Positions 1,659 through 35,130 of a stretch of DNA of 37,922 nt are shown in pieces (the stretch's first letter is position 1; every line of letters starts with the position of its first letter). The DNA comes from Candidatus Nanopelagicales bacterium (GTDB lineage: Bacteria; Actinomycetota; Actinomycetes; S36-B12). The stretch is from the NCBI GenBank assembly GCA_018609125.1, contig JABAYF010000015.1, positions 67,281-105,202 on the forward strand. Reading direction: 5' to 3'. The position numbers were made by a program, and so were the translations under genes. The notes below the pieces were generated by a model. It was not told where the DNA came from and did no database searches. It saw nothing but the letters and a program-made list of their open reading frames with translations.

Positions 1659-1685
1659 ACTCCGATGGCTACGCGGCATCGGAGT
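1659..1685 (-). terminator. Hairpin at the end of livF
   Basis: Perfect 9-bp inverted repeat ACTCCGATG / CATCGGAGT with a 9-nt loop that contains the livF stop codon. No U-tract follows, as is common in actinobacterial terminators. It would end the liv transcript before the adh promoter. Confidence 0.5.
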
Positions 1686-2385
1686 CTGTTCCTGCTGTGA
1701 GGTAGGCGTCTTCGATCTCGCTGATCCGTTCGCGAGCCTCTGCTCCGGTCAGATCCAATACGACGGAGCCGCGCTGCATCACGATGGCTCGATCGGCATA
1801 AGCCAGCGCCTTGCGGGCATGCTGCTCCACCATCAAAACTCCGGTCTGGCGCTCATCGGCAGCCTGACGAACCGCTTTCAGGAGGCGATCTACGATAAGT
1901 GGCGCCAACCCCAGCGATAGTTCATCAGCGAGCAGGAGCCGAGGTTCCCGTGCCAAGGCTCGGCCGAGTGTCAACATTTGCTGCTCGCCGCCGGAGAGTA
2001 ACCCTGCGCGTGTGGTGAGTCGGGATTCCAACTCGGGAAAGAGTGCGGTGACTGACTCGATGGGTAAACCAGCGCAGCGAATATTTTCTGACGTCGTCAG
2101 GCTCCTGATGATTGAGCGTTCCTCGGTCACGAACGAAAGCCCGGCACGCGCCTTGCGATAGAGCGGCTCGTCGGTGAGGCCATCCAGCATCTCAACGGTC
2201 CCCGCCATCAACGGTAGTACCCCTGTGATGCCGAGCAGTGTTGTGGTTTTTCCAGCACCATTTGGGCCAAGCAAGCAGACAACCTCACCCGGCCGCACAG
2301 TGAATGAAACATCCCGCACGACAGGCTGCCCGACATAGCCGACGCTGAGGTTGCTTGCTTTCAGTACGGCGGAGTCTACGGTCAT
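1669..2385 (-). CDS. livF: Branched-chain amino acid-type ABC transporter ATP-binding protein LivF
   Basis: 238-residue cytoplasmic ATPase, the second nucleotide-binding subunit of a Liv/HAAT-type importer. Walker A GPNGAGKTT near residue 40, signature LSGGEQQ near 134, Walker B LLLADE near 155, and switch histidine in VEQHA. The start ATG overlaps the stop of the upstream LivHMG fusion by 4 nt (ATGA), with GGAGGC 6 nt upstream, so translation is coupled. It pairs with the ATPase domain fused to the permease. The family is secure, but Liv-like systems import many substrates besides branched-chain amino acids (amides, urea, aromatic acids), so the ligand is open. Confidence 0.93.
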   Translation of the reverse strand: MTVDSAVLKASNLSVGYVGQPVVRDVSFTVRPGEVVCLLGPNGAGKTTTLLGITGVLPLMAGTVEMLDGLTDEPLYRKARAGLSFVTEERSIIRSLTTSENIRCAGLPIESVTALFPELESRLTTRAGLLSGGEQQMLTLGRALAREPRLLLADELSLGLAPLIVDRLLKAVRQAADERQTGVLMVEQHARKALAYADRAIVMQRGSVVLDLTGAEARERISEIEDAYLTAGTDSDAA

Positions 2386-5300
2386 GGTTTTGCCTCCACG
2401 CCTGTCTCGTCTCGGTCAATGAGTTCTTGTTGGTGATGAGCGTCCTCGGGATCCTCATCACCCAGGTAGGCCGCGATAACAGCCGGATCATTACGGACAT
2501 GATCGGGAGATCCGTGACTGATTTTGCAACCGAAGTCCAACACGACGATGTCGTCACAGACGCTCATGACGAAATTAATGTCGTGCTCAACGAGCAAGAT
2601 GGACATGCCCCACTCATCGGCCAGCCGTTTGACTAGCGCCGCCAATTCGCGAGTCTCCGATTCGTTGAGGCCCGCTGCTGGCTCATCGAGTAGTAAGACA
2701 CTCGGTTGCCCTGCTACTGCGCGCGCGATCGCGAGCAACCGCCGCTTGCCGTAGGACAGATCATCAACTCCCCGAGGCAGATCATCTTCAAGTTTGAACT
2801 CCTGGACAGCGTTGACCAGGGCCTGGGGAGGTTGAGCCTGAACCGGCCAGACCAGGTCTCTGAAGTAGGAAATAAAATCGCGGGGTTCGCTGGCGGCTCG
2901 AAGGTTATCGATAACCGTCATGTCCTCGAATAACTCCAGCGCCTGGAATGACCGACCCACACCTGCTCGACTGCGTCGCGTGGTGACCCAGTTGGTCATA
3001 TCTAGGCCATCGAGTTGAATTCGCCCGGCCGCGGGCTTGGTGAAGCCGGTCACCGCGTCAATGAGCGAGGTCTTGCCCGCACCATTGGGCCCGATGAGCC
3101 CGATGATCTTGCCGGGAGCGATCTCAAGATCCACTGAGTCCACGGCTGTAGTTCCACCGTAACGCACAGTGAGCCCCTCGACGGTCAGAGTTTTCGGCGG
3201 AACCTTGATGATGGTCGCGCTGACCTCGGGCATTTTGATGGGCGCTCCAGGGAGATCACGAGGGCCGATGATCAATTTGATAATCGCCAGGACCGCGAAG
3301 ACGGCGGCAACTGGATACATCGTGAGCATGGTCATGAGAAGGGCACCGAGAAGAGCCTCGGTGACGACGAATGCGCTGATGCGTTGTCGGGCAGACATCG
3401 TTGTGTGCAGGAGTGTCGCCAATGTGCTGATCTGAGCGAGGATCAGCGTCATCGCGGCGACGGCTTGCCAGTCGAGAAGGTATGCGGCGATCGGCACGGC
3501 GACAGCTACAGCCGCGACACCGGCACCCGTAGCGGCCGGCATCTTTACGTCAGCGAATAGCGGCGCAATCGCTAAAGCGATGAGTGAGGTCGCGATGAGT
3601 GGGGTCGTCTCTGGAATGGAACCTAGGAGAGCTAAGACGGCTGCGAGCGCGACCGGCAGGCCAAGGGCCGCCGAGGCGGCACCGATCGTGGGCGTTTCAC
3701 GCGTCAAGATCCAGGTAGTGGCTCCGATGACGATCACGATGAGAGCCAGCGCTAGGCCGCCCCGGTCGGGTCCCTGCACGGCGTACACGACGGCTGCACC
3801 GATGAGGGCGACGCCGAGGGTCGCAACTGCCGCGCCCAGACCAGCGCGCAGCGGGTTTCGTTTGAGTACAGCGAGCGTGATCGTAGCCATCAAGACCACC
3901 AACATGATGACGGTGACTGAACCTCCATCGAGCGCGATGGAGACGATTGCCAACAGCAAACCGAATATGCGCGTGGCTAGCCCACCACCACGCACTGCTG
4001 TCATGCCGGCGGCAACGCCGATTCCGATGAGTGCGATTTCCAACCGGAACCAAGTCCACCAGGACAGTTCAGGGATCAAAGCAACAGCAGCGATTCCCAA
4101 GACGAACCCCACGCCCGGAAGAATGATCCACGAGGGGACTCGGATTCCTTCGCGCAGGTATCGGCGCATCAACTGCGCATTGGTCATGACCTCTTTGACA
4201 ATGCCATCCTGATTAGCGAGCACCATGATTATGAGCGCCACACCACCGATGAGGGGAATCCACGCATCGATGCCGTCGCCCAAGGAGTTGAGAATACGCG
4301 CGTTGAACCCGCCACCGAAGAGCGTTCCGGCAAGCGGTGCGCCAGCAAGGTAGCCAATGCCACCGATCATGGCGTTGCCGATGAGAAGGATCGAGTCGAA
4401 GTTTGTGAACGTTGAATACGATGCTGCCGTGTTTCGGAACACGTAGAGCACGCCGCCCAGCGCTGCGATTCCAGCGCCAATGCCGAAGGCGTACATTTTC
4501 GCACTGACGATTCCGATGCCAAGTGCCGCGGCCGCGCGCTCGTTGGCGCGCACTGCCAAGAGGCGACGACCGACCCGACCTCTGCGAATATTGCTCACCA
4601 CTAAAATCATCAGTAGGAGCACGCACAGCGTGAAGATGGCATAACGCTCTGGGAACTCGTTGCTGCTGAGGTTGATACCCGCGATGGTGGGGTCGGGCAA
4701 TAGGGTTCCCTGGATGCCACCGGTGAGGTCTTGATTCTTGAACAAGACAAGTTCAAGGACGGTGCCCAGGCCAAGTGTCAAGATTGCTAGGTTGATGCCG
4801 CGAGTGCGAACTGCGGGAAGGGCAAAGAGCAGGCCCAATGGAACCGTGGCAATGACACCTGCCGCGATGGCCAGTAGGAAGGGTATTTCAAAGACAGCAG
4901 TGAGGCGCCCGGCGACGTATGCGCCGAAAATCGCTATCGAGAATTGCGCAAGTGATAGTTGGCCTGCATAGCCGGTCAAAACGATGATCGACAAGACGAT
5001 GATCGAGATGGTGATCGTGACGATGAAACTGTCAATCCACAACGGTGTCACGGAAAAGACCATCGCGCCAACAATGAGTAGCGCGGCACCAACGAGGCCC
5101 CAGCGAATCTGGCCGGTACCAACTGAAGGAAGTCGCTGCAAGATGTAGTCGCGTTGAGGAATTCCTTGTCCACGCAACATCATCCACACAACTATGAAGG
5201 CGAATGGGACTGCTTGGCCGATACCTGGAAGACCCGGAACGAGTGAACTCACCTCTGTTTGGGTTACGCCAATAGCTAGGCCTGCTAAGAGTGCAATCGG

Positions 5301-6014
5301 GAATGAACGGAACCCAGCAACGAGCGCGGTCGACGTTGCAGCAAGCACCAGATTGGTCATGACGCTCGGCTGCAGGGTCACGATCGGCATGATGAGCACG
5401 GCTGCAACGCCAGCGAGGGCACTGCCGATGCTCCAGTTGATGATTGCGACGCGGCTGGGTGACCAGCCCAAAGAGGAGGCTACGACCTCGTTCTCAGCAA
5501 CGGCAGTTGTGCCGAGACCAAATCGGGTGTAGCGGTAAAAGACATAAAGTCCAAAGGTGACGGCGATGGCGATGAGAAGCAGAACTAGTCGATCAGCAGT
5601 GAAGAAGACGTCACCAAAAACGTTGATGCGATCGAGGGGAAGGCTGCTCTTCACAATCTTGGGGGCTGAGCCGTAATAGAGGATTGCGATCGACTGCAGG
5701 GTTATCAACACGCCCAATGTGGCAATGACGCGGACGAGTGGAGAACGTTTGCGTAGCGGCCGCATGATGAACTGCTGGACAAGTGCGCCGACTAATGCTG
5801 AAGAGAGCCCACCGGCGGCAAGCGCCACGAGAAATGGCATCCCCTGATTGACCTGCAGTTCCCAAGCGACGTATGCGCCCACCATGCCGATCGCACCCAA
5901 GGCAAGGTTGAGTACGCCTGAGCCGCGAAAAATGACGATGAGTCCTTGCGCAGCGAGAACGTAGAGGGCGCCAATGCCGAGGCCGAGGAGGCCGAAACGT
6001 ACGAGATCTTCCAA
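2382..6014 (-). CDS. Fused LivH-LivM-(extra membrane domain)-LivG ABC transporter protein
   Basis: A single 1210-residue polypeptide carrying both permeases and one ATPase of a Liv-type importer. Residues 1-295 match LivH; about 305-610 match LivM (TGYAGQLSLAQFS near 347); 942-1190 are a LivG-type ATPase with Walker A GPNGAGKTS (975-983), signature LSYGK (1086), Walker B VLLLDEP (1106) and switch His1144. Residues about 622-920 are an additional very hydrophobic region with roughly 11-12 candidate membrane helices that shows no LivH or LivM signature to my eye. Separate proteins, or LivM-LivG fusions, are the common arrangement. The start appears to be TTG at 6014 with GGAG 9 nt upstream; the N-terminus fits LivH. 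The frame is open throughout, so this is not a sequencing merge. Translationally coupled to livF. Confidence 0.9.
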   Translation of the reverse strand: MEDLVRFGLLGLGIGALYVLAAQGLIVIFRGSGVLNLALGAIGMVGAYVAWELQVNQGMPFLVALAAGGLSSALVGALVQQFIMRPLRKRSPLVRVIATLGVLITLQSIAILYYGSAPKIVKSSLPLDRINVFGDVFFTADRLVLLLIAIAVTFGLYVFYRYTRFGLGTTAVAENEVVASSLGWSPSRVAIINWSIGSALAGVAAVLIMPIVTLQPSVMTNLVLAATSTALVAGFRSFPIALLAGLAIGVTQTEVSSLVPGLPGIGQAVPFAFIVVWMMLRGQGIPQRDYILQRLPSVGTGQIRWGLVGAALLIVGAMVFSVTPLWIDSFIVTITISIIVLSIIVLTGYAGQLSLAQFSIAIFGAYVAGRLTAVFEIPFLLAIAAGVIATVPLGLLFALPAVRTRGINLAILTLGLGTVLELVLFKNQDLTGGIQGTLLPDPTIAGINLSSNEFPERYAIFTLCVLLLMILVVSNIRRGRVGRRLLAVRANERAAAALGIGIVSAKMYAFGIGAGIAALGGVLYVFRNTAASYSTFTNFDSILLIGNAMIGGIGYLAGAPLAGTLFGGGFNARILNSLGDGIDAWIPLIGGVALIIMVLANQDGIVKEVMTNAQLMRRYLREGIRVPSWIILPGVGFVLGIAAVALIPELSWWTWFRLEIALIGIGVAAGMTAVRGGGLATRIFGLLLAIVSIALDGGSVTVIMLVVLMATITLAVLKRNPLRAGLGAAVATLGVALIGAAVVYAVQGPDRGGLALALIVIVIGATTWILTRETPTIGAASAALGLPVALAAVLALLGSIPETTPLIATSLIALAIAPLFADVKMPAATGAGVAAVAVAVPIAAYLLDWQAVAAMTLILAQISTLATLLHTTMSARQRISAFVVTEALLGALLMTMLTMYPVAAVFAVLAIIKLIIGPRDLPGAPIKMPEVSATIIKVPPKTLTVEGLTVRYGGTTAVDSVDLEIAPGKIIGLIGPNGAGKTSLIDAVTGFTKPAAGRIQLDGLDMTNWVTTRRSRAGVGRSFQALELFEDMTVIDNLRAASEPRDFISYFRDLVWPVQAQPPQALVNAVQEFKLEDDLPRGVDDLSYGKRRLLAIARAVAGQPSVLLLDEPAAGLNESETRELAALVKRLADEWGMSILLVEHDINFVMSVCDDIVVLDFGCKISHGSPDHVRNDPAVIAAYLGDEDPEDAHHQQELIDRDETGVEAKP

Positions 6015-6149: not shown

Positions 6150-7454
6150 TTAGTCGGAGATGATCGGGCCGACGTTGTCAAATTCCCCACAGGCGCCAAG
6201 TGGAGCAATGACGCCATCTTGAACCTGAGAATAGACAACAGAGGTGTTGAACATCCGCAGGAACGCGGGGAATCCGGTGAATTCATCCCGGAAATTCACA
6301 TCCGGAATCATGCCCGGCAGGTTCACGACCGCGGTACTTGCCGCCGTCGCGAAGTTAGCCGCATTGACATCGTCGGTCATCGACTCGACGATCTGGCTGA
6401 AGCCCATGTAGGCCGTCCAGGTACCCAATCCACCGAGGCTGTTGTAGTCCTCAGAAGCCGGGGCGCTAATTGTGTCAAGCGCACCTCGGTAGTCGGCCCA
6501 CACATCACAGCTGAGGTCAGGGTAGGCGCCCACGACGTATGCGCCCTCTGACGCATCAGGAGACTGTGCGACGACCTTGCTGGACAGGTTGCCCTGCGGG
6601 CCGAAGAGCTTGGCGGTGGGGGCGGCTTGCTCCCACGCTGGCATCCAAGCAAGGAACGGCGTCTCAGAAACCACCATCAGCACGCAGTCCGTGCCACCGG
6701 CGAGTGCCTCGGCCACCTGTGGTGCATAGTCCTGGGCCGTGGCAGGTAGGACAGTGAATTCCTGGTCAAGCTTGTCAGCGCCACCCAGACGCTCGGCGGC
6801 CACCTGCAGGACACCGAAGAAGGATTCAGCACCCTGGATGATCACGGCGTGCATCTTCTCGCAGCCTTCTTCAAGGCCCTTCTTGACGAAGCCAACGCCG
6901 TACATCTGATGGCTACCGAGTGGGAAAGCCAACTTGCTCTGGAATTCCTGAGCACCGAGCATGCAGCAGGCACCGAAGTACGCGACGTTGGCAGGCTCGA
7001 GAATGTCCACGATGGCGTCGGGGGCGAAGTTGAACGAACCGACGACCGCGACGACTCCGTTGTCGACCGCTTTACGAGCACAGGCTGTGGAGCCATCGGC
7101 AGTGCCCTGGCTGTCACAGACGTCAACCTCGAGCGGGCGACCGTTGATGCCACCGTTGGCGTTAATCCACGCCTCGTAAGCCTCAGCGGTGTATTCGATG
7201 TTGGGGTAAATCGGACCTTGCGAGTTGATGTCCGTCACGGTCATCGTCTTGATCGGTTCACCAACGGGTTCCGGCGAAGGGGCCGCCGAGGTGGTGGCAT
7301 CAGTGGGGGCAGGGGCGGTAGTGCTGCCCGAGTCACCGCCTGAACCGCCGCATGCTGCTAGCACGAGTGTTGCCGCAGCCGCGACTGCGGCTACGCGCCA
7401 AGACATTTTGCTGCGGCGCAGCGCACCTGTCTTGGGGAGGAAAGATTGAGTCAT
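6150..7454 (-). CDS. livK: Liv-type ABC transporter substrate-binding lipoprotein
   Basis: 434-residue extracytoplasmic binding protein of the receptor-ligand-binding (Peripla_BP_6/LivJ) family. The N-terminus has basic residues, a hydrophobic stretch and a lipobox LAAC with Cys35, so the mature protein is lipid-anchored outside the membrane; a Gly/Ser/Thr/Pro-rich linker follows. Internal features such as GGINGRPLEVDVCDSQGT and ARKAVDNGVVAVVG are typical of the family. ATG 7454 is preceded by AAAGGCGAGG; the internal Met17 is a less likely start because it would shorten the signal peptide n-region. It is the first gene of the transporter set, with about 220 bp of AT-rich upstream DNA. Ligand not predictable by eye. 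Confidence 0.9.
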   Translation of the reverse strand: MTQSFLPKTGALRRSKMSWRVAAVAAAATLVLAACGGSGGDSGSTTAPAPTDATTSAAPSPEPVGEPIKTMTVTDINSQGPIYPNIEYTAEAYEAWINANGGINGRPLEVDVCDSQGTADGSTACARKAVDNGVVAVVGSFNFAPDAIVDILEPANVAYFGACCMLGAQEFQSKLAFPLGSHQMYGVGFVKKGLEEGCEKMHAVIIQGAESFFGVLQVAAERLGGADKLDQEFTVLPATAQDYAPQVAEALAGGTDCVLMVVSETPFLAWMPAWEQAAPTAKLFGPQGNLSSKVVAQSPDASEGAYVVGAYPDLSCDVWADYRGALDTISAPASEDYNSLGGLGTWTAYMGFSQIVESMTDDVNAANFATAASTAVVNLPGMIPDVNFRDEFTGFPAFLRMFNTSVVYSQVQDGVIAPLGACGEFDNVGPIISD

Positions 7455-17062: not shown

Positions 17063-17553
17063 TCTATGGTGAAGACGTGAAAAGTGACGTGAAGGTAGTG
17101 GACACGGGCAACCGATGGATAATCGCGCGCTCTGTTCTTATTGAGGCTCCGGCGCAGGTCGTCTTTGACGTGATCGCCGACCCACGCCAGCACGCGGCGT
17201 TCGATGGCTCCAAAACCGTTGAGGGAGTTGTCGATGCTCCCGACCGGCTGGCCCTCGGAGATCAATTTCGGATGAAAATGCGCATCAAGGTGCCGTACAA
17301 GATCGGTAGCAAGGTAATGGAGTTTGAGGAGGGTCAGCGCATCGCGTGGGCGCACGTCGGAGGACATCGCTGGCGCTATGAAACGCGGGCCACTTCTGAC
17401 CAGCAGTGCGAAGTAACCGAGATCTTTGACGCCTCCTATGCTCGCTCTGCTCAGGCGCTGCGGTTGATGAACGCCTACACCAACAACACCAAGGCCATTG
17501 AACGAACGCTGTGCCGCTTGAAGAGCTACGTTGAGGAGAGTGCAGCGGGTTAA
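17059..17553 (+). CDS. SRPBCC-family (START/polyketide-cyclase-like) protein
   Basis: 164-residue single-domain SRPBCC (Bet v1-like) fold protein: IEAPAQVVFDVIADPRQHAAFDGS near the N-terminus is the hallmark pattern, and a long C-terminal helix (RLMNAYTNNTKAIERTLCRLKSYVEE) closes the ligand cavity. Proteins of this type bind hydrophobic ligands or act as small cyclases; the role here is unknown. GTG 17059 overlaps the SDR stop by 4 nt; GTG 17077 is an alternative. The coupling to an SDR suggests that both act on one lipid-like substrate. It is convergent with the mutT1-like gene: the two stop codons share 17550-17553. Confidence 0.82.
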   Translation: MIYGEDVKSDVKVVDTGNRWIIARSVLIEAPAQVVFDVIADPRQHAAFDGSKTVEGVVDAPDRLALGDQFRMKMRIKVPYKIGSKVMEFEEGQRIAWAHVGGHRWRYETRATSDQQCEVTEIFDASYARSAQALRLMNAYTNNTKAIERTLCRLKSYVEESAAG

Positions 17554-18455
17554 AACTCGTGGCGCTCCACCGAAATAATGTGCGGTTCTCCGTGGGCGTT
17601 GAAACTGCGGTGCGCAACGACGAACCCTCCCGGAGATAGTTTTGGATCCAGGGTGTCCGTTGGCTCCGTCAGGTATTGCCCAACCTGTTGTAGTAGAGCC
17701 GGAAGCACCGGCCGGTGACTGCAGATCACGAGAGGTTTTGGATCGTGCAGCAGGTCATTGATGCGGCGGGCAGCCTGTTTCGGTCGTTCGACGTGACCCT
17801 CTTCGCTGACACTTGATTCTGATTCAATGCGGACGTCAATATATTTGGCGTAGCGCTGCAATGTTTGCTGGCATCGCAACGCATCGGAGGCATACAGGTG
17901 GCGGACATCGAAGGCGGACAATAACGGGACAAGAGCGTTTGCCTGCGAGCGTCCCTTCCCGGACAGCGGCCGTTGCGCATCCTTGTCACCCTTGTAGTCC
18001 GAGCGCTTCACCGCCTTGGCGTGGCGCAGCACGATGAGCGGTGAGGTTGCGGGCAGGTCGATGGCCACATTGATGAGGTCGACATCACGCGGGTAGGTCA
18101 GCAGCGCCTTCGCTTCGGGTAAATCAACCCAGCGGACCTCGTCGACCTCTTCATCCGGTGCAAAGCCAACCTCGGAATTAACCCCGGCCCTCCAGTAGCG
18201 AACCTCTTTCGGAATCCCCAGTGCCAGATATTGCTGAAGCGGAAGTGGGGGTCCGAGCGTGGGTACGATGCCGGTCTCTTCATCGCACTCCCGGACAGCA
18301 GCAACAACGGGGCTCTCGCCCGGGTCGAGTTTGCCCTTCGGTAGGGACCAGTCGGCGCGATGAGGTCGATGGACTACCGCGATCTGGGGACCGCGACGGC
18401 CAGGGCGCAGTAGTACGACACCGGCAGCCCGCACGACAGTTTCATCGTTGGTCAT
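17550..18455 (-). CDS. MutT1-like Nudix hydrolase fused to a histidine phosphatase domain
   Basis: 301 residues with two domains. Residues 1-135 are a Nudix hydrolase with the box at 41-63 (GKLDPGES..RECDEETGI), which has Cys at the position usually hydrophobic. Residues 138-300 are a SixA/phosphoglycerate-mutase-like phosphatase with RHAK at 144-147, Arg194 and His247 in SHRP. Mycobacterial MutT1 has this architecture, cleans oxidised guanine nucleotides and splits diadenosine polyphosphates, and lies next to ppk as here. ATG 18455 is preferred because its sequence joins the Nudix fold directly and begins 10 bp after the CHAD gene stop; a longer frame overlaps that gene. Third gene of ppk-CHAD-mutT1. 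Confidence 0.88.
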   Translation of the reverse strand: MTNDETVVRAAGVVLLRPGRRGPQIAVVHRPHRADWSLPKGKLDPGESPVVAAVRECDEETGIVPTLGPPLPLQQYLALGIPKEVRYWRAGVNSEVGFAPDEEVDEVRWVDLPEAKALLTYPRDVDLINVAIDLPATSPLIVLRHAKAVKRSDYKGDKDAQRPLSGKGRSQANALVPLLSAFDVRHLYASDALRCQQTLQRYAKYIDVRIESESSVSEEGHVERPKQAARRINDLLHDPKPLVICSHRPVLPALLQQVGQYLTEPTDTLDPKLSPGGFVVAHRSFNAHGEPHIISVERHEF

Positions 18456-18465
18456 GGGTTCACTC

Positions 18466-19995
18466 TCACCATGTGCGCTTCGCCGTTCGGCTGATGTCTG
18501 GCCATCGGGCATCAAGGAATTCGCTACGGCATCTCACTTGTGCAGCTAACTCCAACTGAGATAGCAGCCCGAGGGAAAAACCGGTTGAGCCATTGGTAGA
18601 GAGGGCTATGTCTGAAAGTTTCCGCTGGAAAACATAAGCGTCTTGATGGAGGCCTAGAACCTCAGTACCGCGGCTCAATTCCCTTGCCAGACGTTTGGTC
18701 TTTTTACCCAGGGTAGGCGCAGCGGCCTCCGCGGCATATCGGGCGCGCTTCGCAATGATCCGAGCTGCGTGCCATTGTGTGGCTGGTGAATCCATAGTTA
18801 AAGCACTTACTGCGTGACTCAGGCGCTTGTAGTTGTGACGCACAATATTCGGCAGCACCGAGCCCGCGGGCACTTCGGCCCGGCGAGTCAGTGGCGGGTT
18901 CTGGGCAGCATCAACGAGTAAGTTGAGCAGTTGCGTGTATCGCGCGGTGTGCAACTGGGCATGCGCGCCCGCGACACCGTTATGTAGTTGCTCGTTTAGG
19001 GCGTGGGCGACCTCGGCATATGCTCGCTCCGCATCTGCTACCGGCAGGTGTGAGCACTGTTCAGCGAGCCGGAGTAGGAGGACTTCGCCGTCGCGTGCTT
19101 GTCCAAAACTTCGACCAATCCAGGTGAGTTCTTCGTGCAATGCATCAGCCCAGGCGCGATCGAGGAATGGCCGGAAGATGCGTAAGCCACTGCGGAGCCG
19201 ACGGGCGGCAACCCGAAACTGATGTACCGAATCGGGCATATCTTGTCGGAACTGAACGTCGGCGAAAAACAATTGACGGACATGGGTCGCGAAATAAGCG
19301 CGGACAACCTCCCCGACAGGATCTCTGCGACGAGGCCGCTTCGGTTCGGGTACATCGCACGCCGCACTCGTTTGAGCGCCCAGTGCAGCAGCGGCCTTAC
19401 TCATCGAACCGCGCACAGCCCCTGCGTCAATAACCCGATTCACCACCGCATTCACAACGGCAAGGTCGAGCCGACCGTCCTGATCGGGCACCGCTTCGAC
19501 TTCGATCTCGCGAAATGCGAAAGATTTGGTGTCGTCGTCGCCAATACTCACCGTGTCGTCGACAAATTCAGCAATGACACGACCTGCAGAATTCCGAAAC
19601 AGCATCGGACTGCGCTGGCTGTGCAGGGTTACGACCTCGGCGATGGGCGCATCTCGCAGGAAAGCGGCCACAATCGTGGTGAGCTCCGCTGGCACATGGT
19701 GTTGATCGTCGGTGAGCGGCATTCGCACTTCATCTCGAACTGTCCCTCCGAATCCCGCGACGGGAAGTTTGAGGTGCCAACCCGCATCAGGCCCGCCCTC
19801 TCTGCGACGCAGGGTTACCCGCCAGCGAAAGAGCGCGAAGTCGTGAGTATCGAAATACACATTGCGCATCTGAAATGTTGGTTGGGCTTCGACGGAGACA
19901 TCACCAGACCCCACACCCTCGAGCGAGGGCAGGTGGAAATCACGATCAACGCGAAGTTTGAATTCAACCTCGCGGTAGGTGCTCGCGGTGGGCAT
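18466..19995 (-). CDS. CYTH and CHAD domain protein (polyphosphate-associated)
   Basis: 509 residues. N-terminal CYTH (triphosphate tunnel) domain with the ExExK motif at 9-13 (EVEFK) and conserved basic/acidic strands up to about 205, then a linker and a CHAD domain (about 228-500) with HQFRVAARRLRSGLRIF at 258 and several further His/Arg/Lys helices. CYTH enzymes hydrolyse inorganic tri- or polyphosphate; CHAD domains bind polyphosphate and target proteins to polyphosphate granules. The position 10 bp after ppk and before mutT1 supports a role in polyphosphate turnover. ATG 19995 is followed by a standard CYTH N-terminus; no strong ribosome-binding site, consistent with coupling to ppk. Confidence 0.9.
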   Translation of the reverse strand: MPTASTYREVEFKLRVDRDFHLPSLEGVGSGDVSVEAQPTFQMRNVYFDTHDFALFRWRVTLRRREGGPDAGWHLKLPVAGFGGTVRDEVRMPLTDDQHHVPAELTTIVAAFLRDAPIAEVVTLHSQRSPMLFRNSAGRVIAEFVDDTVSIGDDDTKSFAFREIEVEAVPDQDGRLDLAVVNAVVNRVIDAGAVRGSMSKAAAALGAQTSAACDVPEPKRPRRRDPVGEVVRAYFATHVRQLFFADVQFRQDMPDSVHQFRVAARRLRSGLRIFRPFLDRAWADALHEELTWIGRSFGQARDGEVLLLRLAEQCSHLPVADAERAYAEVAHALNEQLHNGVAGAHAQLHTARYTQLLNLLVDAAQNPPLTRRAEVPAGSVLPNIVRHNYKRLSHAVSALTMDSPATQWHAARIIAKRARYAAEAAAPTLGKKTKRLARELSRGTEVLGLHQDAYVFQRKLSDIALSTNGSTGFSLGLLSQLELAAQVRCRSEFLDARWPDISRTAKRTW

Positions 19996-20005
19996 CGTAG
20001 GAGAC

Positions 20006-22162
20006 CTAGGCCAATCGACCGCGTGTTCGGCGCACAGAAATCAGCGTTTCTTGAATATCGAGCAGCGGCTCGCCCTGTTCATCATGCGTGCGCCGCAGCC
20101 AGGTGCCGTCGGACTGCAGGACCCATGCCGCCGTATTCGGTTCGAATCCTAGTTGGAACAGTGCGTCAATTTCGGCGATGTGCTCCGGTGCTTTCAGACT
20201 GACCAGCGATTCAACACGTCGATCAAGATTGCGGTGCATGATGTCGGCTGAACCGATCCAGGCTTCAGATTCACCGCCGTTGGCAAATTCGAAAACGCGC
20301 GAATGTTCAAGGAAACGCCCAAGAATGCAGATGACGTCGATATTTTCACTCAGACCAGCGACTCCGGGTTGGATGGAACAGATTCCGCGCACCCAAACCT
20401 GCACGGGCACACCTGCTTGTGACGCCCGGTACAGCGAGTCGATGATGTGCTCGTCCACAATCGAATTACATTTAAATCGAATACGCGCTGGTCTTCCGGC
20501 GCGGTGATGGTCAATCTCGCGCTCGATGCGCTCAATGAGTCCGCTACGAATGGAGTGGGGTGCGACGAGCAACCGGTGGTAGTCGGTATTCATTGAGTAA
20601 CCCGACAGAACGTTAAACAGGTCGAGTACGTCATCGCCGACCTGCGGATCGCACGTGAACAGACCAAGGTCTTCGTACAGCCGCGCGGTTTTCGGGTGAT
20701 AATTGCCGGTGCCTAGGTGGCAGTAGCGGCGCAACTGGTCGCCATCGTCGCGGACAACGAGAGAGAGTTTGCTGTGCGTCTTAAGCCCGACCAATCCATA
20801 CACCACGTGAACGCCGGATTCCTCGAGTTTGCGGGCCCACTCGATGTTGTTTTGCTCATCGAAACGAGCCTTGATTTCCACGAGGGCGAGCACCTGCTTG
20901 CCTGCTCGTGCCGCACTGATGAGCGCATCAACGATGGGTGAGTCGCCGCTGGTGCGGTAAAGCGTTTGCTTGATGGCTAGGACATGTGGGTCTTTAGCAG
21001 CCTGCTCCAAGAACAGTTGCACGCTCGTAGAGAAAGAGTCATAGGGGTGATGTACGAGAACATCACGCTCACGGATGACCGACAGCATGTCTGGCGGCGA
21101 AGCGGATTCCACCTCAGACAACTCACGGCTGGTGCGGGGCACAAACTTAGGTTGGCGAAGGTCGTCACGATCAACGCCGTAAATGGCCCAGAGTCCGGTG
21201 AGGTCCAACGGTCCGGGCAGGCGAAAAACCTCCTGCTGCGTCACACCCAGTTCTTCGATGAGCAAGTCAAGGACGTGCGGATCGATAGACTCCTCCACCT
21301 CTAATCGAACCGCGGGGCCAAACCTGCGGCGCAGTAGCTCACGTTCCAGGGCTTTGAGAAGATTCTCGGCATCGTCTTCCTCAACCTCGACGTCTTCGTT
21401 GCGGGTCACGCGAAATGCATGGTGCTGCAACACATCCATGCCGGGAAAAAGCTCGTGTAGGTGGCTGGCAATGACGTCTTCCAGCGGCACGAATCGCTCG
21501 CCGCCGAGGGAAACGAATCGAGGTAGGAGTGGTGGCACCTTGACCCGAGCGAAAAGTTCGGCGCTTGTCTCCGGATTGCGCACAACTACGGCGAGGTTGA
21601 GCGAAAGCCCACTGATGTACGGAAACGGGTGTGACGGGTCAACGGCTAGCGGTGTGAGCACCGGAAAGACCCGCTCGTCGAAGAAGGCGTCCATGGATGC
21701 TTTTTCCGCTGCCGAGAGGTCATTCCAATTGAGCAGGTGAACACCAGCGGCATCGAGAGCGGGCCGTACTTCGGTGGTGAAGATTTCGGCCTGCTTGATT
21801 TGCAGTTCGTGGGAGCGCGACCAGATAGCGTCGAGAACTTCGCGGGGGGTGAGTCCACTCGCGGCGCGCACCGCGATCCCGGTAGCAATTCGGCGCTTGA
21901 GCCCGGCCACCCGAACCATGAAGAACTCATCAAGGTTGCTTGCGAAAATTGCGAGAAATTTGGCCCGATCAAGGATCGGCAGATGTTCATCCTCGGTTAG
22001 TTCCAGAACACGCTTGTTGAACGCCAGCCAGGACAGTTCCCGATCGAGGAAGCGTCGCTCAGGAAGGGGGCCAAATTCGTGGGCTACCTCGGCCGTTCGT
22101 ACTGCGTCAGCCACGATTTCCCCCACGGGGAGGTCGGCTTGGGGCCCCTCCACAGAAGTCAT
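20006..22162 (-). CDS. ppk: Polyphosphate kinase 1
   Basis: 718-residue PPK1, which reversibly polymerises the gamma-phosphate of ATP into inorganic polyphosphate. The N-terminal domain has [17 protein letters not shown] (38-54) and [16 protein letters not shown]; two phospholipase-D-like catalytic domains follow. The autophosphorylated His is His463 in KTHSKLSLV, and the second histidine is in [18 protein letters not shown] near 432 binds nucleotide. Length is normal. The ATG at 22162 lacks a clear Shine-Dalgarno. The 52-bp region to mshD contains a direct repeat (22174-22209). First gene of a ppk / CYTH-CHAD / mutT1-like operon. Confidence 0.97.
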
Positions 22163-27576: not shown

Positions 27577-29619
27577 ATGAGCGCCGAACCGCTGTGGCGG
27601 CCGAGTCCAGACGACATCGAGGCCACGCGCATAAACCGGTTTCGTGGCTGGGTAAACAATCATGCGCTATCAGTTGATACTTCCCCCCTGGCTGATGTCG
27701 ACGCGTTACATGCTTGGTCTGTCGAGCATCCCGGTGCATTTTGGGCGGCCGTGTGGAAGTTTTTTGGTGTGATCGGCGACCCCGGTGATACGGCGCATGT
27801 CCCCGCGGAGTTACCGGAGGCGAAGTTCTTCCCACACGCAACCTTGAATCTGGCCGAGAACATCCTTGGGTACGCGTCAAACCGGGACGATGCAGGGTTA
27901 CCGATTCTTGTCGTGACGGCCGAAATGGGAACCGGCATCGGTGTACTGGCGCAACTCACTCGCGACCAACTCATTGACGCCGTCGCTGAAACGACCGCCG
28001 CTCTTCTAGATCGAGGAGTGCGCCCTGGCGACCGGGTAGCGCTCGTTCTGCCTGCTGGACTCGATGCCTACATCGTCAATCTGGCAGGCTTGGCGATTGG
28101 CGCCGTCATGTGCAGTGCATCCCCGGATTTTGGGGTTGCCGCCATTGTTGATCGCTTCGCTCAGTTAGACCCGGTTTTACTCGTGGGCACCACGTCGTAT
28201 CGCTGGAATGGAAAGAGACACGATCGACAAGAACACCTCGTGGACCTAGCGCGATCCCTCCCGTCCCTGAGGTCGCTACTGATTGTGCCGGGCACCGACG
28301 ACCTCACCGCATCTGTTGATCCTGACATTGTCGATCGAGGGAAAATCGCCGCGCTCATTGCCGCCGGTCAGCACCGTCCACTTCAGGTGTCGCTGCTCAG
28401 CGAAGCGCGGGCTGTCCACGAGGGAGTTAAGCCTCATTTCGAGCAGCTTCCTTTTGACCACCCGGCATATATTCTCTTCTCTTCCGGCACAACGGGAAAG
28501 CCGAAATGTCTTATCCACCGTCAAGGCGGCGTTCTACTCAAACATCTTGTTGAGGCCGGTCTCCATGTAGATGCCCGACCTGGCGACCGTGTGCTGTTTT
28601 ATACGACGACCGGCTGGATGATGTGGAACTGGGCAGCCACGGTGCCGGCCACTGGAGCGACCCTTGTCCTGCATGACGGCGCACCCAACTTTCCCGCTGT
28701 GGACACGCTTTTTGACATCGCAGATCGAACCCAGCTCACCCACCTAGGCGTCGGTGCTCGGTTACTCGAATCGATGCGCACCGAACATATCGAGGTGCGG
28801 GCTGAGCGTGAGCTCAGTGACCTTCGCATGGTGATGGTGACCGGTTCGCCGCTTACCGAGGTCACGGCCAAGTGGGTGGTGGGACAACTCGGCGAAAACG
28901 TGCAGCCGAACCCAATTTCTGGTGGCACAGATCTTGTCGGATGTTTTTTGTCTGGCGACCCGACGCGCCCGATGTGGGCCGGAGAACTACCCGGTATCAC
29001 GCTGGGCATGGATGTTGATGTCGTTGATGATGACGGAGCTTCGCTGCAGCCCGGTATAGCTGGGGAATTGATCTGCCGCAACACTTTCCCAACGGTTCCA
29101 TTGGGAATCTGGGGAGATGAAGACCGATCACGATTACAGTCAACCTATTTTGAGCAAATCCCCGGCGTCTGGACGCACGGCGACCTTACGTCGCGTACCA
29201 CAAACGGTGGCTTCATCATTCATGGTCGCTCAGATGCAACGCTTAACATTGCCGGGGTTCGCATCGGAACGGGTGAGATTTATAGTGCGCTGGAAGAGAT
29301 TGATGAGGTAAACGACGCGCTTGCCTTCGCCCAGGTCTGGCAGCAAGACACACGAATGGTCTTGCTTGTAGTGCTTCATCCCGGATCTGTGCTTACCGAT
29401 GCACTCCAGGAAGAGATTCGACAGACCTTACGAAGCGGGGGATCACCGCGTCATGTGCCGGCCCTGATCTTGGCGGTAGCAGACCTACCCCGCACCCTCA
29501 CCGGGAAACTTGCTGAGGTTGCCGTGGCCTCAATCGTGAATGGTCGGCCGGTGAGAAATCGAGATGCGCTGGCTAACCCCGCCGCGCTAGACGCGATCGC
29601 AATCGCCCTGCAAGCGTGA
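27577..29619 (+). CDS. Acetoacetyl-CoA synthetase
   Basis: 680-residue adenylate-forming enzyme that ligates acetoacetate to CoA with ATP. The AMP-binding signature [13 protein letters not shown] lies near residue 302, followed by [10 protein letters not shown], which is typical of acetoacetyl-CoA synthetase rather than acetyl-CoA synthetase. The adenylation region GGTDLVG (about 449) and C-terminal lysine in [10 protein letters not shown] (about 648) are present; the N-terminal extension [17 protein letters not shown] is also characteristic. Start 27577 is favoured by the 6-nt -10 spacing; ATG 27571 two codons upstream is possible. It overlaps convergent kmo by 47 bp, so antisense interference between this gene and the kynurenine operon is possible. 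Confidence 0.9.
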
Positions 29620-30934
29620 GGCCACTCGCTATCAATCCGAGGCCGGTCGCGATGGCGACTGCCCTGCGTTGAGCGCGCACCCGTGGCTCGATTGACGCAT
29701 ACGGCGTTGTGGAAAAAGACACCATCTCGTAGCGTGTTCGGTAGTGCTCGCCCAGAAGGCGATGCAGAGTATTTTCGGTGGCTCGTACGGCGCGATATGT
29801 TCGTGAATTCACCGAGTCACGCATTTCAATAAAATTGTGCAGTGCCAAATCTGCAACCGCGTTGGAGTTAACCACTCGATCCTCTGCGTAGGCGGGCATT
29901 GCCATTGCCCAATCACCCTGTGCCGCATCAATTGCAGCTACGAGGCTCAGGCAATCCTCAAACGAGGCGTTTGCACCCTGGCCATAAAAAGGAACGATTG
30001 CGTGCGCTGCATCACCAAGAAGCACACAGCGGTTCATCCACCACGGTGAGCAACGAACGGTAACGAGCGATCCCACCGGATTGTGGGTGTAGTCGTCAAC
30101 AAGTGATGGCATCAGAGTTGCTGCATCTGGGTAATGTTCATCGAAAAAGTCTGTGATCTTCACCGAGGTATCCAGAGCAGCGAACGAGTCGTCGCCACTT
30201 TTGGGCCAAAACAGGGTGCAGGTAAATGAACGGTCAAGATTGGGCAGAGCGATCATCATGGATGATCCGCGGGGCCAAATGTGAAGAGCGTCCGGGTTGA
30301 GGGCAAACTCACTGTTTTTGGCGGGAATGGTGAGTTCTTTGTATCCGTAGGGCAGGTAGTCCTGCTCGAAGTTGAAACCATCGCGCAGGGTGAAAGCGCG
30401 ACGCACTGCGCTGTATGCGCCATCGGTGCCGATGATGACATCTGCCGTCACGATCTTTTCACCGTCGTCAGTACCCAGAGTGAGTTGAGTCTGATCAATA
30501 TCGCAATCTTCAACCCGGTGTTGGAAGAAGATTTCAACGCTTGGCTGTGCTTCAGCGGAGTTGAGAAGCAGCGCGTTTAGTTCGCCACGACTGATGGAGT
30601 TGATAGCTCGCTGGCCGTCGGCGCTATAGCTTTGATACTCCTGCTCACCGTTAACGGGGTGCAGCATGCGCCCGTGCATCGGAAGTCCGCGAGCGAGGAC
30701 TTCATCGGTCAGGCCCACACTGTTGAGTGCTGTGAGTCCGCGGGTTGAGATCGCTAAGTTGATGCTGCGCCCACGTGCGGCTCCGGTGAGGCGCGGATCC
30801 GGACGACGCTCATAAACTCGAACCCGGTACCCGCGTTGGCCCAACATGGTTGCCAGCAGTGATCCGGCAAGCCCGGCACCCACGATGACCACGTCGCCGG
30901 TGGCGCTGGGTTGGTTCGACAGCGTTGTGCTCAT
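29573..30934 (-). CDS. kmo: Kynurenine 3-monooxygenase
   Basis: 453-residue FAD monooxygenase that hydroxylates L-kynurenine to 3-hydroxykynurenine with NADPH and O2. N-terminal VIVGAGLAGS (FAD GxGxxG, 17-26), YERRPDPR after the second strand, GTDGAYSAVRR (about 165), and the second FAD motif GDAAHAIVPFYGQGANASFED with the KMO-specific FYGQG. The C-terminus ends in a hydrophobic helix ([14 protein letters not shown]) like the membrane-associating tail of other KMOs. ATG 30934 shares one base with the ACMSD stop (TGATG), so re-initiation is likely; a 10-residue-longer frame is less plausible. Last gene of the kynurenine operon, overlapping the convergent acetoacetyl-CoA synthetase by 47 bp. 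Confidence 0.93.
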   Translation of the reverse strand: MSTTLSNQPSATGDVVIVGAGLAGSLLATMLGQRGYRVRVYERRPDPRLTGAARGRSINLAISTRGLTALNSVGLTDEVLARGLPMHGRMLHPVNGEQEYQSYSADGQRAINSISRGELNALLLNSAEAQPSVEIFFQHRVEDCDIDQTQLTLGTDDGEKIVTADVIIGTDGAYSAVRRAFTLRDGFNFEQDYLPYGYKELTIPAKNSEFALNPDALHIWPRGSSMMIALPNLDRSFTCTLFWPKSGDDSFAALDTSVKITDFFDEHYPDAATLMPSLVDDYTHNPVGSLVTVRCSPWWMNRCVLLGDAAHAIVPFYGQGANASFEDCLSLVAAIDAAQGDWAMAMPAYAEDRVVNSNAVADLALHNFIEMRDSVNSRTYRAVRATENTLHRLLGEHYRTRYEMVSFSTTPYASIEPRVRAQRRAVAIATGLGLIASGLTLAGRLRSRLARRG

Positions 30935-31974
30935 CAGGCCGGATTCTCCATCTGTTGTTGCCACGTAGTTAGTCGAGCGCCTAGGAAAACTTCCGCGTTT
31001 CCGCCAAGCATGCTTTCACGCTGGGTGGCTGAAATGAAATCAGCTCGGTTGATCACGGCGCCAGCCGGCCGCTCGCCTAGGGGATAAGGATAGTCCGAGC
31101 CAAGCATTACTCGGTTACTGCCATGCGTGTCGACCAGTAGCCGCAAAGCTTTAGTGTCGAAAACGACTGAATCCACGCTGAAACGATCCACATATGCAGA
31201 GGGAGGCAGTTGAGAGGTGGCGATGACGTCGGGACGCCTCGACCACGCGTTGTCCATGCGGCCACTCCACATGGCGAACGATCCACCACCGTGGGCGAAA
31301 CACAAGCGCAGATCTGAACTGACTCGATCGAACACGCCACCGAGAATTAACGCCAGAATGGATAAATGAGTCTCAGCGGGCATCCCCACTAGCCACTGGG
31401 CCATCCAGCGTTGGTTTCGCGGGGTTGCCTGCATGTCCCACGGATGGACGAAGACCGCGACATCTCGGTGAGCACAATGCTGCAAAAACTCAACGATACC
31501 GCCATCGTCGAGATCCCGATCGCCAACATGATTGCCAATCTCAACGCCCACGTGTCCAAGGTCTAGACATCGGTCCAATTCGCGGCAGGCAGCCTCGGTG
31601 TCTTGCAGGGGTACTTGGCAAAAGGGCACGAGGCGGGAGGGGGCTGCCACGCACATTGATAGTGCTAGATCATTAAAAACAGAGGCGATGCGTTCGGCAT
31701 CAGCAGCTGCATGCTGGTAATGAAAAAACACCGGCGTCGGTGAGACAACCTGCATGTCGATGCCGTCTACGTCCATATCGGCTAGTCGATGTTCAGGGCT
31801 CCAGCAGGATTGGTCAATGGGTCGAAAGTCTTTGTTGCCCAGCATGATCATGGCCGATACATCGTTGATCTGGCGCAGCCATGGCCACTCGCCGTCCGTT
31901 CCGGTGAGTGCGGCGAGGTCGGGCCATCCCTGCGGGACGAAGTGTGAGTGCACATCAATGACCGGTGGTGTCAC
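30934..31974 (-). CDS. 2-Amino-3-carboxymuconate-6-semialdehyde decarboxylase (ACMSD)
   Basis: 346-residue amidohydrolase-2-family TIM barrel that decarboxylates ACMS to 2-aminomuconate semialdehyde, diverting flux from quinolinate/NAD. All residues known for the Pseudomonas enzyme fall at the same numbers: His9 and His11 (HxH zinc ligands), Arg51, His177, His228 in AHGGG, and Asp294 in GSDYPYPLG. The assignment is therefore strong. GTG 31974 has AGGGGT upstream and lies 6 bp after the dioxygenase stop. It fits a catabolic rather than an NAD-biosynthetic kynurenine pathway. Confidence 0.95.
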   Translation of the reverse strand: MTPPVIDVHSHFVPQGWPDLAALTGTDGEWPWLRQINDVSAMIMLGNKDFRPIDQSCWSPEHRLADMDVDGIDMQVVSPTPVFFHYQHAAADAERIASVFNDLALSMCVAAPSRLVPFCQVPLQDTEAACRELDRCLDLGHVGVEIGNHVGDRDLDDGGIVEFLQHCAHRDVAVFVHPWDMQATPRNQRWMAQWLVGMPAETHLSILALILGGVFDRVSSDLRLCFAHGGGSFAMWSGRMDNAWSRRPDVIATSQLPPSAYVDRFSVDSVVFDTKALRLLVDTHGSNRVMLGSDYPYPLGERPAGAVINRADFISATQRESMLGGNAEVFLGARLTTWQQQMENPA

Positions 31975-31980
31975 TGGGTA

Positions 31981-32505
31981 TTACCCCTGACCCGGATGAA
32001 GATGGTCACACTGTGGGCAGCGGCGTGCACTTTCGTCAGCATAGAAGGCAGCGAATACCGGGGGTAGATCAGCAGCAATATCGCGCACCTGCAGTTCCAC
32101 CTCGTGCACCAGCGCGTTGCACTGCGGGCAGTACCATTGGAACTTTTCCAGCGTGCCCTCATTGCGTACCCGTTCAAAGACCAGGCCGATGGAACCAGCT
32201 TCGGGCCGCTGCGGTGAGTGCGGCATTAACCGCGGGAGTACCCACATCTCGCCAGCACCAACGGTGACGCGTTCGGGCCCATCGGCGGTCATCAAGTCGA
32301 CATGCATGGTTCCCTTGACCTGATAAAAGACCTCTTCGAATGGGTCCACGTGGTAGTCGGTTCGAGAGTTGGGCCCACCCACCACCATGACGATGAAATC
32401 ATCGCCGCCGGGAAACATCTCCTTGTTGGCAACCGGTGGCTTTAACTCTGGGCCGTTTTTGGTGACCCACTCGTTGAAATTTAGTGTTGTGGTGAGGTCA
32501 GTCAT
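31981..32505 (-). CDS. 3-Hydroxyanthranilate 3,4-dioxygenase
   Basis: 174-residue cupin Fe(II) dioxygenase that opens 3-hydroxyanthranilate to ACMS. Residues match the Cupriavidus (Ralstonia) metallidurans enzyme shifted by one: iron ligands His52, Glu58 and His96, substrate residues Arg48, Arg100 and Glu111, and a C-terminal rubredoxin-like iron site with Cys126, Cys129, Cys163 and Cys166. ATG 32505 overlaps the RidA stop by 4 nt, with GGGAG 6 nt upstream. It sits directly before ACMSD, so the unstable ACMS product is handled by the neighbouring enzyme. Confidence 0.96.
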   Translation of the reverse strand: MTDLTTTLNFNEWVTKNGPELKPPVANKEMFPGGDDFIVMVVGGPNSRTDYHVDPFEEVFYQVKGTMHVDLMTADGPERVTVGAGEMWVLPRLMPHSPQRPEAGSIGLVFERVRNEGTLEKFQWYCPQCNALVHEVELQVRDIAADLPPVFAAFYADESARRCPQCDHLHPGQG

Positions 32506-32951
32506 GAGCGCTCCCTGGTTCCGGCGCCTCGATGAGCCACCGCTTGGATTTCGATGAGGAGGTCGGGGTGTGGCAGTTCCTTAACCGCTACCGTGGTTCG
32601 GGTTGGGCCTGAGGAGTCGAAGAACTCGGCGTAGGCACGGTTGTATTCGGCGAAATCGGCCATATCTACTAGGAAACAGGTGACCTGCACGAGGTCAGCC
32701 AAGGTGCAATCGGCCGTGGCGAGCAGATCACCAATGTTGGTGATGACAGCCCGTGTTTGCGCAGTGATATCAAAATGTTTGGTTCCGTCAGGGGCTATCT
32801 CAACGCCCACGAACGTGTCGTCAGCACGCCGACTGCTGGTGCCCGACACCCACACCAGATTGCCAACCGACTTCACGTGCGGATAGGCACCACGCGGGGT
32901 GGCCTTATCCGCCACGACGAGGCTGGCAACCTGAGGGTTGTTTGAGTTCAC
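32502..32951 (-). CDS. RidA/YjgF-family deaminase, probable 2-aminomuconate deaminase
   Basis: 149-residue RidA-fold protein (GAYPHVKSVGNLVWVSGTSS; LADLVQVTCFLVDMADFAEYNRAYAEFF; conserved Arg in SGPTRTT and Glu in IEIQAVA). In nitrobenzoate and 3-hydroxyanthranilate meta-cleavage pathways a protein of this family deaminates 2-aminomuconate to 4-oxalocrotonate, and the operon context here supports that role over generic enamine/imine deamination. GTG 32951 is the start; the gap to the formamidase gene is 55 bp, the largest inside the operon. The dehydrogenase that should produce its substrate is missing from the window. Confidence 0.8.
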   Translation of the reverse strand: MNSNNPQVASLVVADKATPRGAYPHVKSVGNLVWVSGTSSRRADDTFVGVEIAPDGTKHFDITAQTRAVITNIGDLLATADCTLADLVQVTCFLVDMADFAEYNRAYAEFFDSSGPTRTTVAVKELPHPDLLIEIQAVAHRGAGTRERS

Positions 32952-33006
32952 TTCAACATTGTGTCGCTCGCTCCACGATGAAACAAGGCGGGGATCGCGC
33001 CGAGCC

Positions 33007-33819
33007 TCAATCTTTCAGTGTCTGGAGCAGGGAGCGGCGAAATGTACTCACCTGCGATGTGGGGTCGAGGATTTCGTAGTGACCATCATTTTCGAAAATG
33101 ATCAACTCGCCGGGATTCCCATTGCTTCGGGCATGCTCCAGATAAGCCTCGCTGATGTGCAGTGGTACGTCTTCGTCTGCGCGACCGTGCAGTAGATAGA
33201 TCACCGTCGACGGTTTCGGGCGAAGCAGGAAGGGATCGGTGAGTGCATAACGCTGCGGGGCGTCGGTGGCGCTGCCACCCATCATGTGGTCCACAGCACC
33301 ATCGCCCAGTCGTTCACTGCTCGCCTTCGTTAAGCAGGCCACCGGCGCTGAAGCGATCGCGAGTTGGAAACGGTGGTCAACACTGAGTTGGTCTGGACCC
33401 TGGGTGGACGGTGGTGGCTGACAGATGGCCCACAGAGCCAGCGCACCACCGGCAGAGTGGCCAAGAATCGCACTGCGTCCCGTGTTGATGTCGTGCTGGT
33501 CGGCGTAGGTGATTGTGGCGGCGATACCTGCGGATACGTCAGCGAAGATGGCCGGCCAAGCGTTGTCGTACGCGCGGTATTCAATGTTGCAGACGGCAAA
33601 ACCGTGCTCGGCGAGATCAAGACACGTCGCATCCTCAATTTCTCGGGTCCATTTCGGGCGCCAGAAACCGCCGTGAACCACCACAACCAGTGGAGCCTGC
33701 TTGACCGAAATTGGCAGGAACCACTCGCACACCTGTCGCTCATGCGGGCCGTAGGAAACGATTTCGCGTGCCACGGGAGTGCTCGCGGCCGATCGTGCGC
33801 GATCCTCGCCGGTGTTCAC
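33007..33819 (-). CDS. Kynurenine formamidase, alpha/beta-hydrolase (AFMID-like) type
   Basis: 270-residue alpha/beta-hydrolase. HGGFW near residue 60 is the HGGxW oxyanion motif of AFMID-like kynurenine formamidases, GHSAGG near 134 holds the nucleophile Ser, the acid is in HGRADEDVP and the His in DGHYEIL. It hydrolyses N-formylkynurenine to kynurenine. Most bacteria use the unrelated metal-dependent cyclase-like KynB; this gene is the eukaryote-like fold. The start is GTG 33819 with AGGTGG 5 nt upstream, 8 bp after the kynureninase stop; a longer frame reads back into kynU. Position between kynU and the ring-cleavage genes supports the role. Confidence 0.87.
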   Translation of the reverse strand: MNTGEDRARSAASTPVAREIVSYGPHERQVCEWFLPISVKQAPLVVVVHGGFWRPKWTREIEDATCLDLAEHGFAVCNIEYRAYDNAWPAIFADVSAGIAATITYADQHDINTGRSAILGHSAGGALALWAICQPPPSTQGPDQLSVDHRFQLAIASAPVACLTKASSERLGDGAVDHMMGGSATDAPQRYALTDPFLLRPKPSTVIYLLHGRADEDVPLHISEAYLEHARSNGNPGELIIFENDGHYEILDPTSQVSTFRRSLLQTLKD

Positions 33820-33827
33820 GCATCCAC

Positions 33828-35096: not shown

Positions 35097-35130
35097 GGGC
35101 GAAGTCTGTCAGGTGCAGCCGTTGATAGCG

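What the first reader, a model, noticed from the sequence alone, without database searches (positions are those of the whole stretch)
2382..6014. Liv-type transporter fused into one 1210-residue protein with an extra ~300-residue membrane domain
Residues 622-920 lie between the LivM and LivG parts and contain roughly 11-12 hydrophobic segments, enough for a third permease-sized domain. They lack the LivH/LivM signatures visible in the first 610 residues. A normal Liv complex has one LivH and one LivM with two ATPases. An added membrane domain could be a coupling, channel or energy-linked module, or a relic of a duplicated permease. LivM-LivG fusions are known; I do not know of this arrangement as a described system.
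Basis: partly seen in the sequence, partly recalled or inferred. Interest (0 to 1): 0.65.

Follow-up and report, generated by a model that had tools for sequence, protein, structure and literature searches.

The report
Nutrient importer with extra 12-helix domain
A bacterial nutrient-import pump whose two channel halves and one ATPase are joined in a single protein carries, between channel and ATPase, a 12-helix membrane domain that matches no family we could search; the fused pump itself is ordinary in this phylum, and the added domain is a lineage-specific extra of unknown role.

Summary
Confirmed: minus strand, 6014→2382 encodes LivH–LivM–X–LivG (1210 aa, TTG start), overlapping livF by 4 nt, with a livK-like lipoprotein gene upstream. 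X (residues ~612-935) holds 12 predicted TM helices with a clear positive-inside pattern (K+R 126 inside, 16 outside over 8 sequences), both ends cytosolic. X matches nothing in Pfam, NCBIfam or the PDB, and profile comparison does not relate it to LivH or LivM (hhalign probability ≤0.6%, whereas LivH against LivM gives 95-98%). Plain LivH-LivM-LivG fusions (~905-930 aa, no TM at the junction) are common in Actinomycetota. X was found in only 8 genomes of 3 genera in the window's order (Nanopelagicales-like), always inside this fusion, as one clade; one genus has 14 TMs. Two other fusions carry 2- and 4-TM inserts at the same junction. X evolves 2-3 times faster than its neighbours but under purifying selection (dN/dS 0.05-0.10). 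Few polar residues are conserved in its helix interiors. Most likely X is a TMD0-like accessory membrane scaffold, not a transport unit; this is inference. The permease-relic reading is disfavoured; coupling or channel roles are untested. New variant of a known kind, moderate interest.

The parts
5139..6014 (-). LivH-like permease domain, residues 1-292
   Evidence: BPD_transp_2, 2 stretches in the protein; NCBIfam UrtB-like 9-285; AF2 pLDDT mostly 75-93
4197..5117 (-). LivM-like permease domain, residues 300-606
   Evidence: BPD_transp_2 329-567, E 1.9e-47 for the protein; detectable homology to the LivH part, hhalign prob 95-98
4149..4202 (-). Short helix, residues 605-622, basic, just after LivM; possible cytosolic interface helix leading into the extra domain
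   Evidence: AF2 helix H605-622; K/R-rich in all 8 relatives
3267..4133 (-). Extra membrane domain X, residues 628-916, 12 predicted TM helices, N-in/C-in
   Evidence: no significant Pfam, NCBIfam or PDB match; conserved in 8 genomes
3192..3266 (-). Cytosolic linker, residues 917-941, joining X to LivG
   Evidence: Low pLDDT, no regular structure; length and sequence vary
2445..3191 (-). LivG-like ATPase domain, residues 942-1190 (Walker A IGPNGAGK, signature LSYGKRR, Walker B LLLDEP, H-loop EHD; BCA_ABC_TP_C tail)
   Evidence: Foldseek TMt up to 0.93 to LptB chains
1669..2385 (-). livF-like second ATPase, 238 aa, start overlaps the fusion's stop by 4 nt
   Evidence: UrtE/LivF models; ORF coordinates
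6150..7454 (-). livK-like substrate-binding lipoprotein, 434 aa, lipobox LAAC
   Evidence: Peripla_BP_6 E 6.3e-25

Best explanation
The locus encodes a complete Liv/HAAT-type ABC importer: LivK-like lipoprotein, LivH and LivM permease halves, LivG and LivF ATPases. LivH, LivM and LivG are one polypeptide. In this lineage a 12-TM domain X has been added at the LivM-LivG junction. X enters from the cytosol after LivM, crosses the membrane 12 times and returns to the cytosol before LivG, so LivG stays on the correct side. The likeliest role is a TMD0-like accessory domain: a lipid-facing membrane scaffold packed beside the LivH/LivM core that ties LivG to the membrane and may dock a partner or organise the complex, not a second translocation path. 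Shown by computation: the architecture, the predicted topology, selection on X, a single clade among sampled sequences. Inferred: packing against the core, the scaffold function, and that the import cycle is otherwise that of Liv systems.
For: Positive-inside topology with both termini inside. Other fusions carry 0, 2 (L044) or 4 (L068) extra TMs at the same junction, X has 12 and one genus 14: every non-zero count is even, as needed to keep LivG cytosolic. X is present only with this transporter: the same 8 genomes are positive for X and for the close LivHM part. X evolves faster than LivHM and LivG (28-36% vs 63-70% identity between genera for X vs LivHM) yet under purifying selection. Few conserved polar residues inside helices: Q861 in all rows and E886 (Q in one row); R682, R878 and K913 lie near predicted cytosolic ends. 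TM number varies.
Against: No experiment and no confident structure: AF2 pLDDT for X is about 50-66 in the full-length model, up to 71 in one block, and 53 alone, so packing is unknown. Only 8 sequences, several near-identical, underlie the conservation argument. Twelve helices is large for a passive scaffold; Q861 and E886 could be functional.
Confidence: 0.5

Rival explanations
1. X is an active transport or coupling module (channel, ion-coupled carrier or substrate vestibule) fused to the importer, for example passing a hydrophobic substrate or linking import to an ion gradient.
For: Transporter-sized 12-TM domain under purifying selection; a conserved intramembrane Q861 and E/Q886; nearby catabolic genes (zinc dehydrogenase, SDRs, and in relatives acetoacetate-decarboxylase-like proteins) suggest an unusual organic substrate. 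VIA-align lists complex I antiporter-like subunits at Z 6-8 over about 200-257 residues, but that is within the range for unrelated helical bundles.
Against: No match to any carrier or channel family; few conserved buried polar residues; low sequence constraint compared with the permease core.
Confidence: 0.2
2. X is nearly neutral elaboration: a hydrophobic expansion tolerated at the junction, kept mainly because most changes would disturb membrane insertion.
For: Fast evolution, TM number differs between genera, other fusions have short TM inserts at the same junction.
Against: dN/dS of 0.05-0.10, retained in three genera with 2.0-2.6 Mb genomes, and specific invariant residues.
Confidence: 0.2
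3. X is a decayed duplicate of LivH or LivM (third permease copy).
For: It lies next to LivM and is about the size of a permease domain.
Against: hhalign of X against LivH or LivM gives probability at most 0.6% while LivH against LivM gives 95-98%, also with the same 8 rows; no BPD_transp_2 hit in any of 8 members.
Confidence: 0.05

Closest known systems
Fused LivH-LivM-LivG importers of Actinomycetota (e.g. loci from Williamsia muralis L042, Desertimonas flava L046, Pseudonocardia lacus L043, Solirubrobacterales L039)
   Same: Order of domains, start, permease and ATPase sequence (53-61% identity over the LivHM part)
   Different: They have a short TM-free junction (203-231 aa from a LivM motif to Walker A, against 496-497 here)
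HAAT/Liv branched-chain amino acid ABC importers (E. coli LivKHMGF) and urea UrtABCDE
   Same: Subunit set and domain families
   Different: Three parts fused, extra 12-TM domain; below the curated NCBIfam cut-offs for LivG, LivF, UrtB, UrtD and UrtE, so the substrate is not assigned
TMD0 accessory domains of ABC transporters such as Ycf1/MRP1 (ABCC) and TAP (from general knowledge; not compared by sequence here)
   Same: Extra TM domain attached to a complete ABC core
   Different: TMD0 is N-terminal with about 4-5 TMs and sits on exporter-type folds; X is internal, 12-14 TMs, on an importer; no homology claimed

Membership tests
Liv/HAAT-type ABC importer | Two BPD_transp_2 permease domains | tested here: met
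   Two stretches, E 1.9e-47
Liv/HAAT-type ABC importer | Two ATPases, LivG-type with BCA_ABC_TP_C tail and LivF-type | tested here: met
Liv/HAAT-type ABC importer | Cognate Peripla_BP_6 substrate-binding lipoprotein in the operon | tested here: met
   6150-7454, E 6.3e-25; an ORF of similar size and lipoprotein-like start is adjacent in most relatives
Liv/HAAT-type ABC importer | Transport of branched-chain amino acids | not testable with these tools
   All specific NCBIfam models fall below cut-off
LivH/LivM permease family (for domain X) | Profile match to BPD_transp_2 or to the LivH/LivM of the same protein | tested here: not met
   (positive control LivH-LivM passes)
Tandem 2-TM hairpin repeat | Hairpin units more alike in register than out of register or than control windows | tested here: not met
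   mean hhalign score 11.0 in register, 10.8 half-shifted, 9.6 against LivHM windows
TMD0-like accessory domain | Additional TM domain outside the translocation core, with targeting or scaffold role | not testable with these tools
   Architecture compatible; function needs experiment
Any solved fold (domain X) | Confident structural match | tested here: inconclusive
   Model pLDDT 53; Foldseek best E 0.21, no VIA-align row clearly above the background for helical models

The most novel reading that the evidence does not exclude
X is a previously undescribed membrane domain family that adds a function (coupling, substrate guidance or regulation) to a substrate-binding-protein-dependent ABC importer, and the LivM-LivG junction of fused importers is a site where TM domains have been added independently several times.
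Probability: 0.2. Interest if true: 0.7.

Novelty: new variant of a known kind. Interest (0 to 1): 0.42.

Why it matters
ABC importers of the Liv type are common nutrient-uptake systems, and their membrane part is normally just two permease domains. A conserved 12-14 helix addition inside the LivM-LivG junction would show that importers, like some exporters, can acquire accessory membrane domains, and gives a defined deletion target to ask what such a domain does.

Tried and rejected
Permease duplicate: rejected by profile comparison with positive control. Internal hairpin repeat: the six helix pairs look regular by eye, but unit-to-unit scores equal half-shifted controls. Homologue elsewhere: a phylum hit (G692, E 8.5e-4) lies in a P-type ATPase and was rejected; no plasmid match. 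Fold search of X: low-confidence model, no significant Foldseek match; GPCR, McpS, ABC exporter and complex I rows in VIA-align are within background for helical bundles. Homology of the 2-TM (L044) and 4-TM (L068) inserts with X was not tested formally; the tree puts L044 in another clade, while L068 is a long branch of unsure place, and a search of L068's insert in its genus gave, apart from itself, one partial match covering query residues 122-181 only. The same search could not be centred on L044's genome. Literature searches found no description of this architecture (titles and abstracts only were looked at), but the library holds only open-licence papers.

Full report
Observation. The ORF 2382-6014 is on the minus strand and encodes 1210 residues from a TTG start. 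Pfam and NCBIfam show LivH, LivM and LivG parts. Between about residue 612 and 935 no Pfam model matches the window protein even at E 10; among the eight relatives only stray matches to unrelated or uncharacterised models appear (best E 0.034), and neither a single-sequence nor a profile search of PDB sequences gives a significant match. Hydropathy gives 12 peaks, and AlphaFold2 of residues 1-1195 gives 12 TM-length helices there plus a basic helix after LivM. Over the eight relatives the alternating loops carry 126 K+R on one side and 16 on the other, a clear positive-inside pattern that puts both ends of the domain, and therefore LivG, in the cytosol.

Is it real? In the window's order (166 genomes held) eight genomes of three genera have the domain, and the same eight, no others, have the close LivH-LivM part. 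All are single open frames of 1206-1281 aa. Two of the relatives are MAGs titled Candidatus Nanopelagicales, so the window very probably comes from that group. In five genome pairs dN/dS of the domain is 0.051-0.099, against 0.017-0.042 in the flanking domains. Between genera it keeps 28-36% identity against 63-70% for LivHM. It is a real domain, constrained but more relaxed than its neighbours. In a tree of 34 fusions all eight form one fully supported clade, nearest (SH-aLRT 85) to plain fusions from Thermoleophilia/Solirubrobacterales and related MAGs. The copy from G047, same genus as the window, groups with another genus, which suggests transfer or old duplication.

How common is the frame it sits in? 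Plain LivH-LivM-LivG fusions of about 900-950 aa are widespread in Actinomycetota. The distance from a LivM motif to Walker A is 203-231 residues in the plain fusions measured; 278 in L044, which has two extra TMs; 311 in L068, four extra; 496-497 in the window's group, twelve; 559 in L022/L023 (= L036/L037), fourteen. The hydropathy scan alone undercounts some members (10 peaks in several); the count of 12 for them rests on the alignment with the window protein. Every extra count is even, as LivG topology requires. No X relative outside the known clade was found among 395 genomes drawn from the class or 396 from the phylum: the one marginal hit is a P-type ATPase. These are samples, so a rare relative elsewhere is not excluded.

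What is X? Not a detectable LivH/LivM copy: hhalign relates LivH to LivM at 95% (same 8 rows) to 98% (34 rows) probability but X to either at no more than 0.6%. Not a demonstrable repeat. Fold searches are uninformative because the model of X is weak (pLDDT 53 alone, about 50-66 in context). Conserved polar residues well inside helices are limited to Q861 and E886 (Q in one row), with R682, R878 and K913 near predicted cytosolic ends. This is not the pattern expected of a typical ion-coupled carrier, though eight sequences cannot exclude one.

Mechanism. The importer core should work like other Liv systems: LivK delivers substrate, LivH/LivM alternate access, LivG/LivF hydrolyse ATP (inference from family knowledge). 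X most likely sits beside LivM as an accessory membrane scaffold that also tethers LivG (inference, confidence 0.5). A coupling or transport role (0.2) and near-neutral elaboration (0.2) remain open; a permease relic is unlikely (0.05).

Substrate. Neighbouring genes include a zinc-dependent dehydrogenase and an SDR, and in relatives further SDRs, acetoacetate-decarboxylase-like proteins and a tyrosine-phosphatase-family protein. All specific Liv/Urt models fall below cut-off. The substrate is therefore unassigned and need not be a branched-chain amino acid.

Verdict. It is a lineage-restricted new variant of a known importer type, of moderate interest until its function or structure is known.

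Noticed in passing
window 29573-35991, minus strand: A run of genes for tryptophan breakdown by the kynurenine route: tryptophan 2,3-dioxygenase (below its cut-off), kynureninase and 3-hydroxyanthranilate 3,4-dioxygenase by NCBIfam, with a FAD monooxygenase (kynurenine 3-monooxygenase-like), an amidohydrolase (ACMSD-like) and an alpha/beta hydrolase (formamidase-like) between them, the last three named from sequence only.
   Followed up: partly
window 17550-22162, minus strand: A polyphosphate-kinase-like gene next to a CYTH/CHAD-like protein and a NUDIX/phosphohistidine-phosphatase-like protein; identified by eye only.
   Followed up: no
L044:4448-7396 and L068:1501-4614: Fused Liv importers of other Actinomycetota with 2 and 4 extra TM helices at the LivM-LivG junction; each seen once in this sample.
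   Followed up: partly
L056:6010-9456 (Dactylosporangium vinaceum): Fused importer with two ATPase domains in a row (LivH-LivM-LivG-LivF in one ORF; two Walker A motifs).
   Followed up: no
L021:7075-10695 (G047): Copy from the window's own genus groups with another genus in the tree, suggesting horizontal transfer or an old duplication.
   Followed up: no
L017, L018, L019 and L020 flanks: In relatives the importer lies near SDRs, acetoacetate-decarboxylase-family proteins, a zinc dehydrogenase and a Y_phosphatase3 protein, hinting at a catabolic cluster for an unknown organic compound.
   Followed up: partly
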